A stretch of 58,968 bases of DNA from an uncultured Solirubrobacterales bacterium (lineage in GTDB: Bacteria; Actinomycetota; Thermoleophilia; Solirubrobacterales; Solirubrobacteraceae). The notes beneath the pieces were generated by a model. It was not told the DNA's origin. It saw only the letters and a program-made list of their open reading frames with translations, and made no database searches. A program made the translations under genes and the position numbers. Of this stretch, positions 1 to 5,677 are shown piece after piece (position 1 is the stretch's first letter; the number at the start of each line of letters is the position of its first letter). Location of the stretch: the NCBI GenBank assembly GCA_903821395.1, contig CAIJLJ010000037.1, positions 1-58,968 on the forward strand, read 5' to 3'.

Positions 1-1196
1 CGCTCGCGGCTCGCAACCCGACCGGCGGCTACCTCTTCTACGACTGCCAGACCGATGATTCGCGGCTCGTGCTGACAGTAATCGAGGAGGCGGAGCGGTT
101 CGGCGCGATCTGCGCTAACCGGCTCGAAGCTACAGGACTCGTCGAGCAGAATGGCCGTGCCCGTGGTGTCGCAGTACTTGACTCCGAAAGCGGCAGTGAG
201 TTCGAGATCCGCGCCGACAATGTGGTGAATGCCACTGGAGTGTGGGCCGATCGGCTTCGCCCCGACGAGTTGCACGACGATGCTGGTCTGCCTGTGATTC
301 GTCCAAGCAGAGGAACCCACATTACGATCGCTAGCGCGAAACTGCCGCTCAATGATGGTGTGATCGTGCCGGCAGGGGAGGGGCGTTCGATCTTCGCGCT
401 GCCGTGGCTTGGCTCCACCCTGATTGGGACGACCGACAACGACTACGACGAGAGCGACCTGGACCACATAAGCCCGGCTGCCTCCGACATTGAGTACTTG
501 CTAGATGCCACAAACGAGTTCTTCGCAACTGACTTTGGCGCGGACGACATCAGTGGCGCCTTCGCTGGAGTAAGGCCGCTGATCGCAACCGGCGACCCGA
601 AAAAATCGGTTGACATCTCGCGCCGAGCTGAGCTTTACGAAACCGGTAGCGGCATGATCACGATCACCGGCGGAAAGCTCACCACTTGGAGGCGGATGGC
701 GAGGATGGCGGTCGATCGGATTGTTGAGCGCGATTCGCGTGACGCGCCCTGTCGGACCGAGGAGATCCAGCTCGGCCAAGCGATTGACGCCAAAGATTTG
801 CCGCGGGTGGAGGGCGTCCCCGAGGAGGCCTATGGGCAGCTTGCCGACCGTTACGGCTACCGAGCCCGCGATGTTCTGGCCGTCGCCGCGGAGAGCGGTG
901 AGCTCGCGCAGCCGATCGTCGCCGATGGGCCCACGGACCTTCTTGCCGAGGTTGCGTTTGCTGCTCGCCACGAGCAGGCACGGAGCGTTGGTGACGCGTT
1001 GCTGCGACGCAGCCGGGTCGCGCTTCTCGCAGCTAGAGAGATGACCGCCGACGATGGTGCCGTTGCGCGCCGCGCTGCGCAGGCGATGGCGCGTGAGCTC
1101 GGATGGAGCGCGGCGCGGATCGATGATGAGATCGAGAAGTTCACCGTTGAGGCGGCAGCGGAGGGAATCGTCGCCAATGTCGCTCCGACTGCGTAG
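1..1196 (+). CDS. glpD: Glycerol-3-phosphate dehydrogenase, FAD-dependent (5' end cut by window)
   Basis: Oxidises glycerol 3-phosphate to dihydroxyacetone phosphate and passes electrons through FAD, usually at the membrane. The frame is open from base 3 with no start codon, and its first residues (GGYLFYDCQTDD) match an internal GlpD motif, so the N-terminal FAD-binding part lies outside the window. Visible family blocks are NATGVWAD, SRGTHI, LIGTTDNDY, AGVRPL and ITGGKLTTWRRMA, followed by the helical C-terminal domain of this family. The GTG at 69 is an internal codon, not the start. The stop at 1194-1196 overlaps the proposed start of the next gene. The family assignment is firm; a close paralogue with another sn-glycerol-phosphate role cannot be excluded. 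Confidence 0.93.
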   Translation, partial: LAARNPTGGYLFYDCQTDDSRLVLTVIEEAERFGAICANRLEATGLVEQNGRARGVAVLDSESGSEFEIRADNVVNATGVWADRLRPDELHDDAGLPVIRPSRGTHITIASAKLPLNDGVIVPAGEGRSIFALPWLGSTLIGTTDNDYDESDLDHISPAASDIEYLLDATNEFFATDFGADDISGAFAGVRPLIATGDPKKSVDISRRAELYETGSGMITITGGKLTTWRRMARMAVDRIVERDSRDAPCRTEEIQLGQAIDAKDLPRVEGVPEEAYGQLADRYGYRARDVLAVAAESGELAQPIVADGPTDLLAEVAFAARHEQARSVGDALLRRSRVALLAAREMTADDGAVARRAAQAMARELGWSAARIDDEIEKFTVEAAAEGIVANVAPTA

Positions 1197-3096
1197 CCTT
1201 TGCGCAGTGAAGTTTCCTCGGTCGAAGAGCGCGGTTCTCGCGGTCTGCTCGCTTGCGGTCGCAGCGCCGCTAACTTTCGCGGCCGTGGCAGCGGCCGATG
1301 GGTCGTTCTCTACCGCCATCCGGGCTGACGGTCCATCGACTGGCGTAGTAGCTCTCGGCGACGTCGAGATGGCGTTCGACAGCAGCGCCGCGCTGGCTTA
1401 TGTCCGCAGCGCCGAAGGCGCGAACCACGTGTACATCAGCAAGCTCGTTTCAGGAACCCCGCAGACCCCTGCGCGAGTTGATCAAGGTCAACCCGCCGTA
1501 ATCGGAAAGCCGGTTGTCGCAGTTGGCAATGGGGGAAGGATGGCGGTCCTATTCGCCAACAGCGCAGGCGTTTGGGCACGGGTCCAGACGGCGCCCGGAC
1601 AGGCATTCTCTAGCGCGCAGCGGCTAGGCGGGCCAGGGTCAAGCTCCCCATCCGTCGACATGGCTCCTTTGACCGGCACGGCATACGCGAGCTGGAGTGA
1701 GGGCGGTGCAGTCCGAGCCGCGTACTTGCCTCGGCATCTGAGCGCATTCAAGCTCTACTCCGGCTCACTGAACATCAACCCGGCGGCCAGCGCCGGTTCC
1801 ACGGCAGCGCTCGCTCCGAAGGTTGCGACCTCGGCCGACGGCACTGCGATCGTCGCGTTCGGCGAGAACGATGGGTCGACGACGCGAATAGGTCTGCGAC
1901 GCCTCGTTCGCGAACGGCTCTCGAGCGTCGTAATGAGCGCTGGTGTTGACACTCTCGATGGGCACGCCGGCGGCGCCGCCGATCATCCAGACGTTGTTAT
2001 CCAAGCCGACTCAAGCTTTGCTTGGGTCGTCTTCGCACAGAGTTTCGACGATGGAGTTCGCCGGGGAGTCATCCGGCGGGTTCGCACTTCGACGCTCGAA
2101 GCACCGCAAGTCCTTGCCGGTGGCGCGGCGATCGGGGACGCTGAGGGCCCAACCGTTTCGGGCAGCGATCGGGGATCTGGGATCGCTTCCGTACAGAGTG
2201 CCGACGGAACTATCTGGGCTTCAGTGATGCGGCGCGGCACCGTTGCGCCGCCCATCGCCTTGGCCAGTTCACCGGCTATGGGCGCAGATCCATCCAGCGC
2301 CTTTGCGGTCAGCCAGCTCGGCGTGAGCGCCTGGGGGCAGTCCCCGAGTGGAGACGTTTACGGACGCAGCGTCGCGGAGGACGATTCGCTCCCTGCCGTC
2401 CCGCCTTTTGCCGCGCAGACTCTGCTCTCCAACCCAAGCTTCGGCGCAGTCGACACCGCTGGTGGCCTAGGGCTTGCGACCGATCTCTTCGGCAATACCG
2501 TGATCGCGTTCACCCAAGGCCCAGTTGGCGCGCGCAGCGTCGTGGTTGCGTCGTTCTCGCTGCCGGCAGCGGCGGTGCGTCTCACTGGTCTTAGCCGCTG
2601 GCAGAAGAGCTCGCTGCCGAAGCTTACGTGGTGGACCGAATCGCAAGGCTGGCCGGCCCAGAGTTACCGCGTCTACATCGATGGGCAGCTGGCGGGGACT
2701 ACCGGAAAGACGAGCTTCGACCCGGTGAGTGCGCTCGGGGATGGCACGCACAAGTGTCGCGTTGAGAGTGTTGATCGGACTGGACATACCGTCGCTTCGG
2801 TGCTTAGCGACCTGAAGATCGATACGACGATTCCAAAACTCAAGGTGCGGCTCGTAGGCTCCGGAATCGCAACCATTGTGGTGGGCACCGCCAGCGATAC
2901 AAAAGCGCCCCAAGGCTCTGGGCTGGCTGCTGTTCGCGTTAACTTCGGTGATGGGTCGCCGATTGTGGTTGTGCGAGGCCCAGCTTTCAGGTTAAGCCAC
3001 GCGTTCACTCGCTCGGGGCGGCTGGCCGTGACCGTTACGGCGATCGACGGCGCCGGCAACAGCAACGTCTTCAGTGGCAACGTCACAGCGGGTTGA
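1177..3096 (+). CDS. Secreted protein with beta-rich repeats and C-terminal PKD/Ig-like domains
   Basis: A 639-residue protein of unknown function, probably exported. With ATG 1177 (a GGAGGG lies about 12 bases upstream) it begins with a basic stretch and a hydrophobic signal segment (AVLAVCSLAVAAPLTFAA) ending near AAAD. GTG 1207 would give a shorter signal peptide and avoid the overlap with glpD, and is a fair alternative. Residues of about 50-480 are rich in Gly, Ser, Ala and Val and resemble a beta-propeller-like repeat region. The last 160 residues contain two Ig/PKD-like modules (YRVYIDGQLAG; VNFGDGSP with AIDGAGN). No catalytic motif was recognised. It may be a cell-surface or matrix protein; the role is not inferred beyond export. 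Confidence 0.75.
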   Translation: MSLRLRSLCAVKFPRSKSAVLAVCSLAVAAPLTFAAVAAADGSFSTAIRADGPSTGVVALGDVEMAFDSSAALAYVRSAEGANHVYISKLVSGTPQTPARVDQGQPAVIGKPVVAVGNGGRMAVLFANSAGVWARVQTAPGQAFSSAQRLGGPGSSSPSVDMAPLTGTAYASWSEGGAVRAAYLPRHLSAFKLYSGSLNINPAASAGSTAALAPKVATSADGTAIVAFGENDGSTTRIGLRRLVRERLSSVVMSAGVDTLDGHAGGAADHPDVVIQADSSFAWVVFAQSFDDGVRRGVIRRVRTSTLEAPQVLAGGAAIGDAEGPTVSGSDRGSGIASVQSADGTIWASVMRRGTVAPPIALASSPAMGADPSSAFAVSQLGVSAWGQSPSGDVYGRSVAEDDSLPAVPPFAAQTLLSNPSFGAVDTAGGLGLATDLFGNTVIAFTQGPVGARSVVVASFSLPAAAVRLTGLSRWQKSSLPKLTWWTESQGWPAQSYRVYIDGQLAGTTGKTSFDPVSALGDGTHKCRVESVDRTGHTVASVLSDLKIDTTIPKLKVRLVGSGIATIVVGTASDTKAPQGSGLAAVRVNFGDGSPIVVVRGPAFRLSHAFTRSGRLAVTVTAIDGAGNSNVFSGNVTAG

Positions 3097-3111
3097 GTGC
3101 GCTAAGTCGCG

Positions 3112-3117
3112 TAGCAT
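3112..3117 (+). promoter_or_regulatory. -10 hexamer TAGCAT of the pyrimidine reductase gene
   Basis: TAGCAT ends 7 bases before the GTG at 3125 and no Shine-Dalgarno site precedes that start, so the transcript probably begins at or next to the start codon. Confidence 0.5.
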
Positions 3118-3124
3118 CGCGGAC

Positions 3125-3880
3125 GTGGCCGATCAATTCGAGACCCTCACTCCGACTGGCGAGGGAGCAAATGAAGCGTCGGAGCTGGTCGCGCAGCTCA
3201 ACCTAGGGGCGCCTGCGACCGGTGACCGGCCACGCCTTGTCGCTGCGATGATCGCGTCGGCCGATGGCCGGGCGGCCGTTGACGGGCGCGCGGGTGGTCT
3301 AGGTAGTCCCCCTGACAGAGCAATCCTTCGTGAGCTGCGCTGCGCGATGGACGCGGTTCTGGTTGGTCCAACGACTCTGATTGAAGAGCGCTATTCGTCG
3401 CTCCTCGATGACGAGCACCGCGAACGCCGTCTTTCTAGCGGACGGCCAGCCGAACCGATCACGGCAACGATCTCGCGCAAACTTGACCCGCGACTGGAAG
3501 AACTAAATCTCTTCGCCACCCCTGATCAGCCGATCGTGATCTATACGGAGTCAGCCAACGAGATGACGAGCCACGGCGCTGATATCCAGGTTCAGCGGTT
3601 GGAGCCTGGGCAGCTGAGTTTGGCCGGATGCCTAGAAGATCTGCACGCCAATCATGGTGTTCAGACTCTGCTGAGCGAAGGAGGACCAACCTTGCTCCGG
3701 GCGCTTGTCAGCGAGGGGCTAGTTGACGACTTCGTCTTCACCGTCTCACCTCTGCTCGTTTCCGGCTCGGGTACAAACCTGATCAGTGGAGACACGTTCG
3801 ATCCGCCGGTCGGGCTCGATCTGCAGAACGTCTGGAAGAGCCAGAACTTCCTCTTCCTTCACTACACGCGTCAGCGCTGA
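3125..3880 (+). CDS. Pyrimidine reductase family protein (RibD C-terminal / DHFR-like fold)
   Basis: About 251 residues of the RibD_C reductase fold, which uses NADPH to reduce a ribosylamino-pyrimidine in riboflavin synthesis or related substrates. Landmarks are AAMIASADGRAAVDG near the N-terminus, the VLVGPTTLIEE strand-helix and the conserved LLSEGGPTLLRALVSEGLVD segment. There is no deaminase domain. A full two-domain RibD is encoded at 47771, so this is a paralogue, of the stand-alone type common in actinobacteria. GTG 3125 is chosen because it clears the previous gene and sits 7 bases after a TAGCAT hexamer; the longer frame to 3074 would overlap the secreted-protein gene. The substrate cannot be read from the sequence. 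Confidence 0.8.
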   Translation: MADQFETLTPTGEGANEASELVAQLNLGAPATGDRPRLVAAMIASADGRAAVDGRAGGLGSPPDRAILRELRCAMDAVLVGPTTLIEERYSSLLDDEHRERRLSSGRPAEPITATISRKLDPRLEELNLFATPDQPIVIYTESANEMTSHGADIQVQRLEPGQLSLAGCLEDLHANHGVQTLLSEGGPTLLRALVSEGLVDDFVFTVSPLLVSGSGTNLISGDTFDPPVGLDLQNVWKSQNFLFLHYTRQR

Positions 3881-3971
3881 GCGCTACTGTTGGGATCGCA
3901 AAGGATCGCTGGCCGCTGTCACTACGCGGCTGGAGTGCCAACCGATTCGCATTCAACCGAAGGAGTAATAA

Positions 3972-5186
3972 ATGTCTGTTTTTTCCCGTGACGCCCTTGA
4001 GGGCAGTCCGCTCGCCGATCTACACGCGATCGCTTCCGAGCTTGGTATTGAAGGCTTCCGCCGTATGCGTAAGGCCGATCTTGTAAAGGCGATCATCATT
4101 GACCAGGGCGGCGACCCCGGTCCGGACCCTGAGCCCGAGCCGGTTGATGACGACGCCGGTGATGAGGCAGCCGAGAAGCCAGCGCGCTCCCGCTCGCGGC
4201 GAAGCGGCTCCGGTGGTTCACGCAGCGGCGGCCGCGAAAGCGGCGGCTCGCGCGGTGGAAGTTCGTCGCGCTCAGAAGGCGGCCGCGGCGGTGGGCGCGG
4301 TGGTTCACGTTCTGATCGTGGCTCCGAAGGTGCCGAGAGTGAGGTCGAAGGTACGATCGAGGTGCTCGGTAACGGCTCAGCTTTCGTCCGAGTAAACCCA
4401 CCAGGGCAGAGTGACGAAGATGTCTACGTCTCGGCCGCTCAGGTTCGACGCTGTGAGCTGAAGTCGGGCGACAAAGTAGCCGGCCCGGCGCGTCCTGCGC
4501 GTCGTTCCGAGCGCTACCCGTCGCTTGTTCGAGTCGTGACGATCAACGGCAGCTCAGCAGATGAGGTTTCTGTCGGAACGCCTTTCGACAAGCTTGAGGC
4601 CGGTTTCCCGACTCAGCGAATCGGGTTCTCTTCGAAGAACTCGACCTTGAAGACAATTTCATCGGCCGCGCCGTTCGGGCGTGGATCGCGCGTCAGCGTG
4701 ATTGGCCCGTTCGGTAGCGGTCGCAGCACCACGCTGCGAATGCTGGCCGCCGAACTTGCCGCAATCGAAGACATTGAGCTTTCGGTTGTGCTGGCAGGCG
4801 TCCGACCCGAGGAGCGTGCCGAGTGGGCTGCCGCAGGGATCGAGCCAGCGGGAGTCGAGTTGCTAGGCGCCTCGTCGGATTCGCAGGCCAAGGCGATCGA
4901 GAGAGTTGTCGAGTCAGCGCGCAAGGTAACCGCGAGGGGGGGGCACAGCGCAGTCGTGATCGACTCGCTCGACGGCCTCGATGGCGCGGCGGCTCGCAAG
5001 GTCACAGGCGCCGCCCGCAACGTGCCGGGCGCTGGTTCGCTAACCGTAATCGTCGCCCTCCGCGATCCGGTTGGTGGCGAAACTACTTCGATCTATCTTG
5101 TCTCGCAGGACGGCGGCAAGGTCGGCGATCCAGCCGTCGACAAGACTAAGAGCAAGACGCTGCGCAGCAACCTGCTTGGCGCTTAA
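3972..5186 (+). CDS. Rho-like protein with degenerate ATPase site
   Basis: 404 residues with the layout of transcription terminator Rho but a damaged motor. Residues 12-42 look like the Rho N-terminal helical (SAP-like) domain. Residues 45-125 are a Pro/Asp then Ser/Arg/Gly-rich linker. Residues 126-190 are the cold-shock-like RNA-binding domain. A RecA-like core follows. The P-loop reads GPFGSGRST (245-253), with Arg251 where the nucleotide-binding Lys belongs. The usual DERPEE block is AGVRPEE (275-281), so the catalytic acid is missing. Walker B Asp331 is kept, but only 15 residues separate it from GAARN (346), so the Q-loop is absent. The C-terminus lacks the R-loop and arginine finger. 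A strong site (GGAG) precedes ATG 3972. It probably binds RNA without ATP-driven translocation. Confidence 0.8.
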   Translation: MSVFSRDALEGSPLADLHAIASELGIEGFRRMRKADLVKAIIIDQGGDPGPDPEPEPVDDDAGDEAAEKPARSRSRRSGSGGSRSGGRESGGSRGGSSSRSEGGRGGGRGGSRSDRGSEGAESEVEGTIEVLGNGSAFVRVNPPGQSDEDVYVSAAQVRRCELKSGDKVAGPARPARRSERYPSLVRVVTINGSSADEVSVGTPFDKLEAGFPTQRIGFSSKNSTLKTISSAAPFGRGSRVSVIGPFGSGRSTTLRMLAAELAAIEDIELSVVLAGVRPEERAEWAAAGIEPAGVELLGASSDSQAKAIERVVESARKVTARGGHSAVVIDSLDGLDGAAARKVTGAARNVPGAGSLTVIVALRDPVGGETTSIYLVSQDGGKVGDPAVDKTKSKTLRSNLLGA

Positions 5187-5659
5187 GGAGCGGCGGAGCG
5201 CGGGATGTAGGCGACGCGGCCCCAGGAGGGCTCAGGCGCTAGCTCGACCGGTTCGTCGTCACGGTCGGGCTGCACATAGGTGAAAGACCGAGCCTGCTCG
5301 TCGTAACGGACGTCGAGCTCGCCCTCCATCACGCGCTGGTCAAGCCAAGCGGAGCGGAAGATTAGGCGTCGCAGCCAATGAACGAGTGAGCGGTCAGCTG
5401 GGCCAACAAGCTCTGGCCAGCAGTCATTGACGTGCTCGCCGAGATCGGACGCTGGCTGCTGAATCTCACCGTTGACCGCGAGGTTTACTAGATCTTCTAG
5501 CTCGTTCTCGTCGAGCGTTCCCGCGACGAAGCCGAGGCGGTGGGCAGCCTGCTGACTGCGCTCGGAGAAGTCGCGCTCGTTGAAGGTGAAGCGCAGCTCA
5601 CCGTACTCGAGGACGAAGTCTTCGCCGGAGTCATAGTTTCCGCGGATTGAGGGGTTCAT
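5183..5659 (-). CDS. Hypothetical acidic protein, 158 residues
   Basis: Not recognised. The protein is soluble and acidic, with no membrane segment and no Cys or His cluster. The N-terminal part (FVLEYGELRFTF) looks like beta strands and the centre (LVHWLRRLIFRSAWLDQRVM) like an amphipathic helix. ATG at 5659 is preferred; GTG at 5668 would add three residues. It faces the Rho-like gene tail to tail and the two stop codons overlap by four bases (5183-5186) at a CTTAAG palindrome, so the reading is confined by both neighbours. Codon use resembles the surrounding genes, which supports a real gene. Confidence 0.7.
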   Translation of the reverse strand: MNPSIRGNYDSGEDFVLEYGELRFTFNERDFSERSQQAAHRLGFVAGTLDENELEDLVNLAVNGEIQQPASDLGEHVNDCWPELVGPADRSLVHWLRRLIFRSAWLDQRVMEGELDVRYDEQARSFTYVQPDRDDEPVELAPEPSWGRVAYIPRSAAP

Positions 5660-5677
5660 TGAGTCCACAAATAGAAG

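What the first reader, a model, noticed from the sequence alone, without database searches (positions are those of the whole stretch)
3972..5186. Rho-like protein that has lost its ATPase motor but kept its RNA-binding half
The gene has a good ribosome site, intact frame, an intact Rho N-terminal helical domain, a Ser/Arg/Gly linker and the cold-shock RNA-binding domain. In the ATPase part the P-loop Lys is Arg251, the catalytic acid block DERPEE is AGVRPEE, the Q-loop is deleted and the C-terminal R-loop and arginine finger are gone. In established Rho biochemistry each of these is needed for ATP-driven translocation. The inference is a pseudo-ATPase: an RNA-binding competitor, modulator or adaptor of true Rho, or a storage/condensate protein through its RG-rich linker. 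I know of no described role for such a paralogue.
Basis: partly seen in the sequence, partly recalled or inferred. Interest (0 to 1): 0.8.

Follow-up and report, generated by a model that had tools for sequence, protein, structure and literature searches.

The report
Order-wide Rho with a dead motor
A whole order of bacteria carries, as its only copy of the near-universal transcription-terminating motor Rho, a version whose motor parts are broken or deleted but which is still preserved by natural selection, so these bacteria probably use a Rho remnant for something other than motor-driven termination.

Summary
The 404-aa ORF at 3972-5186 is Rho-derived: Rho N-domain, disordered Arg/Gly/Ser linker, RNA-binding fold, RecA-like core. 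Walker-A Lys184 is Arg251, catalytic Glu211 is Val277, Arg-finger Arg366 is Leu397, and the Q- and R-loops are deleted. Two corrections: one RNA-stacking aromatic (Phe62) is also lost (Ser136), and it is not a paralogue beside a true Rho. The genome has no intact rho, nor does any of 232 genomes of the order. Instead 108 of 120 near-complete genomes carry exactly one such ORF, at the same locus in all four families examined. Q-loop deletion and Arg-finger loss are universal (52/52 sequences); Lys184 and Glu211 went lineage by lineage. Within the genus dN/dS is 0.06-0.19, so the gene is selected. Five genomes of two genera that seemed to lack it carry an ORF there with the RNA-binding domain deleted but N-domain and dead core kept. 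Another family (f34) and one f19 genome show similar motor decay. Best reading: a motor-less Rho derivative acting without ATP-driven translocation, in most lineages by binding RNA. Motor loss is sequence-certain; the present role is inferred. I found no description of such a family, but a key survey was unavailable.

The parts
3960..3965 (+). Shine-Dalgarno-like AAGGAG, 6 nt before the ATG
   Evidence: read directly
3972..5186 (+). motor-dead Rho derivative, 404 aa (P0001)
3996..4097 (+). Rho_N helical domain, aa 9-42
   Evidence: Pfam PF07498 E 4e-10; lowest dN/dS of the gene with the CSD
4113..4337 (+). disordered linker aa 48-122, 27% Gly, 20% Ser, 16% Arg
   Evidence: composition; low pLDDT 57-119; variable length and composition in relatives
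4344..4559 (+). Rho RNA-binding (cold-shock/OB) domain aa 125-196; F64, R66, D78, Y80, E108, Y110 kept, F62 to S136, F89 to C161
   Evidence: Pfam PF07497 E 9e-21
4704..4730 (+). Walker A remnant GPFGSGRST aa 245-253; K184 = R251
4794..4814 (+). former catalytic block AGVRPEE aa 275-281; D210-E211 = G276-V277, R212 kept
4953..4970 (+). Walker B VVIDSL aa 328-333; D265 kept (D331)
4989..4994 (+). site of the Q-loop deletion (about aa 340/341)
   Evidence: alignment, deleted in 52 of 52 order members
5058..5078 (+). site of the R-loop deletion (LRDPVGG, aa 363-369)
   Evidence: alignment, deleted in all f1, f2 and f4 members
5151..5165 (+). former Arg-finger motif: SGTRK has become SKTLR (aa 394-398); R366 = L397
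5183..5668 (-). 161-aa unknown protein, convergent, stop codon overlapping the rho-derived stop; conserved neighbour, not a functional partner by occurrence
   Evidence: no Pfam or NCBIfam match; neighbour in f1-f4; also in rho-less and intact-rho families of the class
3074..3880 (+). upstream RibD_C-domain reductase, neighbour in several f1 genomes
   Evidence: Pfam PF01872 E 1e-22; synteny

Best explanation
This is the only Rho-derived gene of its genome and order (the order of Solirubrobacteraceae, presumably Solirubrobacterales). Shown: the ATP-driven RNA motor has been dismantled. The Q-loop is deleted and Arg366 lost in all members examined, the R-loop is deleted or destroyed, Glu211 is lost in three of four families and Lys184 in most lineages. 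Shown: the gene stays open, syntenic and under purifying selection, most tightly in the Rho_N and RNA-binding domains but also in the dead RecA core. Inferred: it cannot thread RNA or terminate transcription by translocation. It works as an ATP-independent RNA-associated protein that captures RNA through the retained primary-site residues and its basic disordered linker, and uses the RecA-like core as a structural or partner-binding module. The role could be RNA chaperoning or protection, or a translocation-independent effect on elongating RNA polymerase.
For: No intact rho in the own genome, in 41 relatives or in 232 genomes of the order, of which 112 are at least 90% complete and at most 5% contaminated; controls ring and intact rho is common in the phylum, 74 of 80. 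One Rho_RNA_bind ORF per genome, no stops, in 108 of 120. Conserved locus glpD-(ribD_C)-rho'-orf161 in loci of all four families. Motor losses counted on 52 sequences. Primary-site residues F64 47/48, Y80 47/48, E108 48/48 in f1-f3. dN/dS 0.06-0.19; N-domain 0.00-0.09 and CSD 0.02-0.14 below the motor-like part 0.08-0.25. Fold search returns Rho first, E 5e-19. Similar motor decay with the CSD kept in f34 and one f19 genome.
Against: RNA binding is not universal to the family: f4 has lost F64, Y80 and E108 and the five examined g137/g139 genomes have deleted the CSD, so the common core function may not be RNA binding. F62 is Ser or Thr in all 38 f1 and f2 sequences, which should weaken the classical cytosine pocket. 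Lys184 is kept in 16 of 26 f1 sequences, so nucleotide binding may persist there. Residues were lost differently by lineage, as expected under relaxed selection. No biochemical data exist; oligomeric state, RNA affinity and partners are untested. The structure model is only moderately confident (pLDDT 64).
Confidence: 0.6

Rival explanations
1. The retained job is protein-protein, not RNA binding: the Rho_N domain, basic linker and dead RecA core form a scaffold or adaptor (for example on RNA polymerase or another complex), and the RNA-binding domain is an accessory that some lineages dropped.
For: The N-domain and dead core are what all examined members share, including g137/g139 without a CSD and f4 with a ruined CSD. 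Core dN/dS is below 1 in both settings. NusG is present in the own genome.
Against: In f1-f3 the primary-site residues are almost invariant and the CSD is more constrained than the core within the genus. No partner is known; the only fixed neighbour, orf161, occurs without rho.
Confidence: 0.2
2. A relic on its way out: Rho became dispensable in the order's ancestor and the gene is decaying slowly, with little function left.
For: Different catalytic residues are lost in different families; f4 and g137/g139 are stripped further; families f5, f7 and f10 of the class have no detectable Rho; dN/dS in g137/g139 is higher, 0.16-0.45 in the core.
Against: One open frame without stops in 108 of 120 near-complete genomes over 37 of 39 genera; dN/dS 0.06-0.19 in the window's genus; order-specific fixed changes such as F89 to Cys in 48/48 of f1-f3.
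Confidence: 0.13
3. It is still an ATPase and terminator with rearranged catalysis, as the kept R212, Walker B, occasional GKT/GKS Walker A and shifted Arg (TLR) might allow.
For: R212 51/52, D265 52/52, K184 16/26 in f1, E211 9/10 in f3, Arg at position 367 in 23/26 f1 and 10/12 f2.
Against: No member has the full set; the Q-loop is absent everywhere and the Arg finger everywhere replaced; the window protein has neither K184 nor E211. [quoted passage not shown]
Confidence: 0.04
4. A competitor, modulator or adaptor of a true Rho in the same cell.
For: Domain make-up alone would suit such a role.
Against: No true Rho is present: own genome, 0 of 232 order genomes; the rpmE-prfA cluster in the own genome has no rho beside it.
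Confidence: 0.01
5. Assembly artefact or misassembly of a normal rho.
For: The window comes from a draft genome in 180 contigs, 94% complete.
Against: The same losses in many independent genomes, including single-contig ones (G024, G025, G205).
Confidence: 0.01

Closest known systems
Transcription termination factor Rho (TIGR00767 / PRK09376; E. coli Rho, PDB 3ICE, 1PV4, 8PTG)
   Same: Domain order Rho_N, OB/cold-shock RNA-binding domain, RecA-like core; primary-site residues F64, R66, D78, Y80, E108, Y110; R212 and D265; fold search returns Rho first.
   Different: No Walker-A Lys, catalytic Glu, Q-loop, R-loop or Arg finger in place; score 124 against cut-off 509 bits; C-terminal helices after E. 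coli ~372 missing.
Actinobacterial Rho with an N-terminal insertion (M. tuberculosis Rho, PDB 7OQH)
   Same: Long charged insertion between Rho_N and the RNA-binding domain; poor motor activity in M. tuberculosis (PMC8828861).
   Different: M. tuberculosis Rho keeps the catalytic residues and both RNA-translocating loops (PMC8828861), and its depletion causes rapid death (PMC5379054).
Phase-separating Rho of Bacteroides thetaiotaomicron
   Same: Disordered region in a Rho protein, shown there to drive condensates (PMC10284900, PMC13269538).
   Different: BtRho is described as an active terminator whose activity rises on condensation; here the motor is dead and condensation untested.
Short-form Rho paralogue (NCBIfam NF041509, paralog_Rho2)
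   Same: A named deviant Rho family; second copies in G131 and G155 seen here.
   Different: The examined second copies are the mirror image, motor kept and RNA-binding aromatics lost; P0001 scores 86 against a cut-off of 628.
Degenerate Rho of family f34 and of G400 (f19), same phylum, found here
   Same: Sub-cut-off Rho with broken Walker A and altered motor, CSD aromatics kept; single Rho match in each genome.
   Different: Residual Q-loop sequence and other losses (Walker B Asp to His in G146); other branch of the phylum.

Membership tests
Transcription termination factor Rho | Score above the curated equivalog cut-off (TIGR00767, PRK09376) | tested here: not met
   124 vs 509 and 134 vs 315 bits
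Transcription termination factor Rho | Rho_N helical domain | tested here: met
   PF07498, 40 bits vs cut-off 24.9
Transcription termination factor Rho | OB/cold-shock primary RNA-binding domain | tested here: met
   PF07497, 74 bits vs cut-off 27; most primary-site residues kept, F62 lost
Transcription termination factor Rho | Walker A GKT (K184) | tested here: not met
   R251
Transcription termination factor Rho | Catalytic Glu211 | tested here: not met
   V277
Transcription termination factor Rho | Arg valve R212 and Walker B D265 | tested here: met
   R278 and D331
Transcription termination factor Rho | Q-loop and R-loop (secondary RNA site) | tested here: not met
   both deleted
Transcription termination factor Rho | Arg finger R366 | tested here: not met
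   L397, with R398 next to it
Transcription termination factor Rho | RNA-dependent ATPase, hexameric ring, termination activity | not testable with these tools
   needs purified protein
Short-form Rho paralogue (NF041509) | Score above the curated cut-off | tested here: not met
   86 vs 628 bits
Pseudogene of rho | Frame disrupted or neutral evolution | tested here: not met
   no stops inside; dN/dS 0.06-0.19

The most novel reading that the evidence does not exclude
A motor-less Rho that still engages nascent RNA and the elongation complex and stalls, releases or protects RNA polymerase without translocating: natural evidence that part of Rho's biology does not need its motor. The order, plus f34 and G400, would be natural separation-of-function variants.
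Probability: 0.15. Interest if true: 0.9.

Novelty: new variant of a known kind. Interest (0 to 1): 0.7.

Why it matters
Rho is treated as one of the most conserved bacterial motors. Here an order of 54 sampled genera lacks an intact copy and most of them keep a rho-derived gene whose motor is gone, with similar decay elsewhere in the phylum and complete loss in other families of the class. That raises two directly testable questions: what Rho's non-motor parts do (the long debate over whether Rho acts by translocation or by allosterically inactivating polymerase; from my own knowledge), and how these high-GC bacteria end transcripts with neither a working Rho nor, in a small crude sample, an excess of classical hairpin-T terminators at gene ends.

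Tried and rejected
Literature: ten full-text searches found no description of motor-dead Rho or of Rho in Solirubrobacterales/Thermoleophilia. The main survey of Rho variants (Moreira et al. 2024, NAR, cited in PMC13323073) is not held, so prior mention cannot be excluded. Compensation by intrinsic terminators: hairpin + T-tract and hairpin strength at gene ends in 160-kb samples of ten genomes plus the window showed no clear excess in degenerate-rho or rho-less genomes; gene calls were crude and numbers small, so inconclusive. A first rpoB tree used antisense ORFs for some rows and was redone. A first per-family residue count mixed group labels and was redone. Orf161 as a functional partner: rejected, it occurs without rho. 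True absence of rho in f3 g137/g139: rejected for the five genomes examined, a CSD-less ORF sits there. Absence in f5, f7 and f10: the orf161 loci examined there hold no convincing rho remnant, but a strongly reduced copy elsewhere would have been missed. The Rho tree groups f34 with the order at 94% SH-aLRT; long branches make this doubtful, and f34 belongs to another branch of the phylum by the tool's kinship labels and was used as outgroup in the rpoB tree, so independent origin of the f34 case is likely, not proven.

Full report
What is there. The ORF at 3972-5186 (+) encodes 404 aa with a good ribosome site (AAGGAG at 3960-3965, six bases before the ATG). Pfam finds Rho_N (aa 9-42) and Rho_RNA_bind (aa 125-196) above cut-off and the ATPase family only weakly; NCBI's Rho models score it far below their cut-offs (124 vs 509, 134 vs 315). 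The best solved relatives are all Rho, and the AlphaFold model (pLDDT 64 overall, about 70-89 in most of the domains) finds Rho first in the PDB at E 5e-19, with low TM-scores, probably because domain orientation is uncertain.

Residue check. On an alignment of 52 order members with 28 intact Rhos including E. coli: K184 = R251, D210-E211 = G276-V277, R366 = L397; Q-loop and R-loop deleted; R212 (R278) and D265 (D331) kept. In the RNA-binding domain F64, R66, D78, Y80, E108 and Y110 are kept, but F62 is Ser136 and F89 is Cys161.

Not a paralogue. The own genome (1.98 Mb, 94% complete) has no other Rho; the other TIGR00767 hits lie on contig C99 with much weaker scores, over the ATPase part only, as expected of F1-type ATPase subunits (my reading). 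None of 41 relatives and none of 232 genomes of the order, 112 of them at least 90% complete and at most 5% contaminated, in 54 genera, has a Rho match at E 1e-85 or over the cut-off, while the control genomes ring. In the phylum 74 of 80 genomes have an intact Rho. Within the class, f6, f8 and f9 have intact Rho, f1-f4 (the order) the degenerate form, f5, f7 and f10 none detectable. Record titles place three close matches in Solirubrobacteraceae; the order name is inferred.

Order-wide retention. 108 of 120 genomes at least 90% complete have exactly one Rho_RNA_bind ORF with no internal stop. In the loci examined from all four families the gene lies between glpD and the convergent orf161, often with a RibD_C gene, and near a response regulator, cpaB/cpaF and mraZ; the intact Rho of f6, f8, f9 and f24 has other neighbours. 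The own genome's rpmE-prfA cluster has no rho beside it. An rpoB tree supports the order as one clade (100/100).

Pattern of loss. Q-loop deleted 52/52; R366 lost 52/52; R-loop deleted in all f1, f2 and f4 and scrambled in f3; E211 0/42 in f1, f2 and f4 but 9/10 in f3; K184 kept in 16/26 f1, otherwise Arg, Ala, Thr, Val or Gly; R212 51/52; D265 52/52. Primary RNA-site residues: F64 47/48, Y80 47/48, E108 48/48 in f1-f3; f4 has lost all three (4/4). F89 to Cys in 48/48 of f1-f3 is an order-specific fixed change. The shared Q-loop deletion and Arg-finger loss point to an ancestral motor loss, followed by lineage-specific erosion.

Selection. Nei-Gojobori estimates among seven sequences of the window's genus give dN/dS 0.06-0.19 for the gene; Rho_N 0.00-0.09, RNA-binding domain 0.02-0.14, motor-like part 0.08-0.25. 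Synonymous sites are near saturation (dS roughly 0.6-1.4), so values are approximate, but neutral decay is excluded for this genus.

Complication. Twelve of the 120 genomes gave no RNA-binding-domain hit; nine are of f3 genera g137 and g139. In five examined genomes of these genera (G220, G211, G213, G224, G226) the same locus holds an ORF with Rho_N, a very Arg-rich linker and a dead RecA core (no P-loop; LLIDPSPEEL; LVDSLTRL; GSLTVVA) but no RNA-binding domain (Rho_N E 8e-7; in G211 the contig end cuts off the N-domain). Core dN/dS there is 0.16-0.45. So the RNA-binding half is not the universally retained part; the N-domain and dead core are. The other three genomes (G012, G248, G309) were not examined.

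Other cases. All five sampled genomes of f34, elsewhere in the phylum, have a sub-cut-off single Rho with broken Walker A (GRT, or no Lys) and altered loops but perfect CSD aromatics; G400 (f19) shows an earlier stage among intact relatives. G400 is clearly separate from the order; f34 very probably is.

Mechanism. Shown: translocation machinery absent. [quoted passage not shown] Q- and R-loops translocate RNA; PMC8828861): no ATP-driven translocation, hence no classical Rho termination. Inferred: in f1-f3 an RNA-associated role through the primary site and basic linker; the dead core as scaffold. NusG is present. I favour an ATP-independent RNA-binding protein, with a protein scaffold as the main rival and slow relic decay as the next. 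A translocation-independent effect on polymerase is the most novel reading not excluded.

Novelty. I found no paper describing this, but the key survey of Rho variants was not readable here. I class it as a new variant of a known kind: a Rho-derived pseudo-ATPase family standing in the place of Rho in a whole order.

Noticed in passing
L295:9210-10070 (-), L296:9646-10302 (-), L297:5548-6240 (-), L298:5615-6475 (-), L306:180-986 (-): f3 genera g137/g139 carry a Rho derivative with the RNA-binding domain deleted, keeping Rho_N, a poly-Arg linker and a dead RecA core at the same locus.
   Followed up: yes
L149, L203-L206 (family f34) and L207 (G400, f19): Apparently separate motor decay of Rho in other lineages of the phylum, with the RNA-binding aromatics kept.
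   Followed up: partly
L150 (G131), L151 (G155): Second Rho copies with the opposite pattern: motor motifs largely intact, RNA-binding aromatics lost.
   Followed up: no
window 5183-5668 (-): 161-aa protein without any Pfam/NCBIfam match, 100% identical to the copy in L094 although the neighbouring rho-derived protein is 87% identical; present in much of the class.
   Followed up: partly
G041, G046, G048, G043, G054 and other f5, f7, f10 genomes: Three families of the class have no detectable Rho in genomes at least 90% complete.
   Followed up: partly
L208-L247: T-runs (TTTT) are almost absent downstream of convergent gene ends in rho-less and dead-rho genomes with 70% GC or more, with no clear excess of hairpin terminators; how they end transcripts is unexplained.
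   Followed up: partly
L095, L096: Public MAG records titled Bifidobacterium breve carry close relatives of this gene and locus and look mislabelled.
   Followed up: no
window 1054-3096 (+): 680-aa ORF with weak PKD/Ig-like domain matches between glpD and the RibD_C gene, syntenic in several f1 genomes but less conserved than its neighbours.
   Followed up: no
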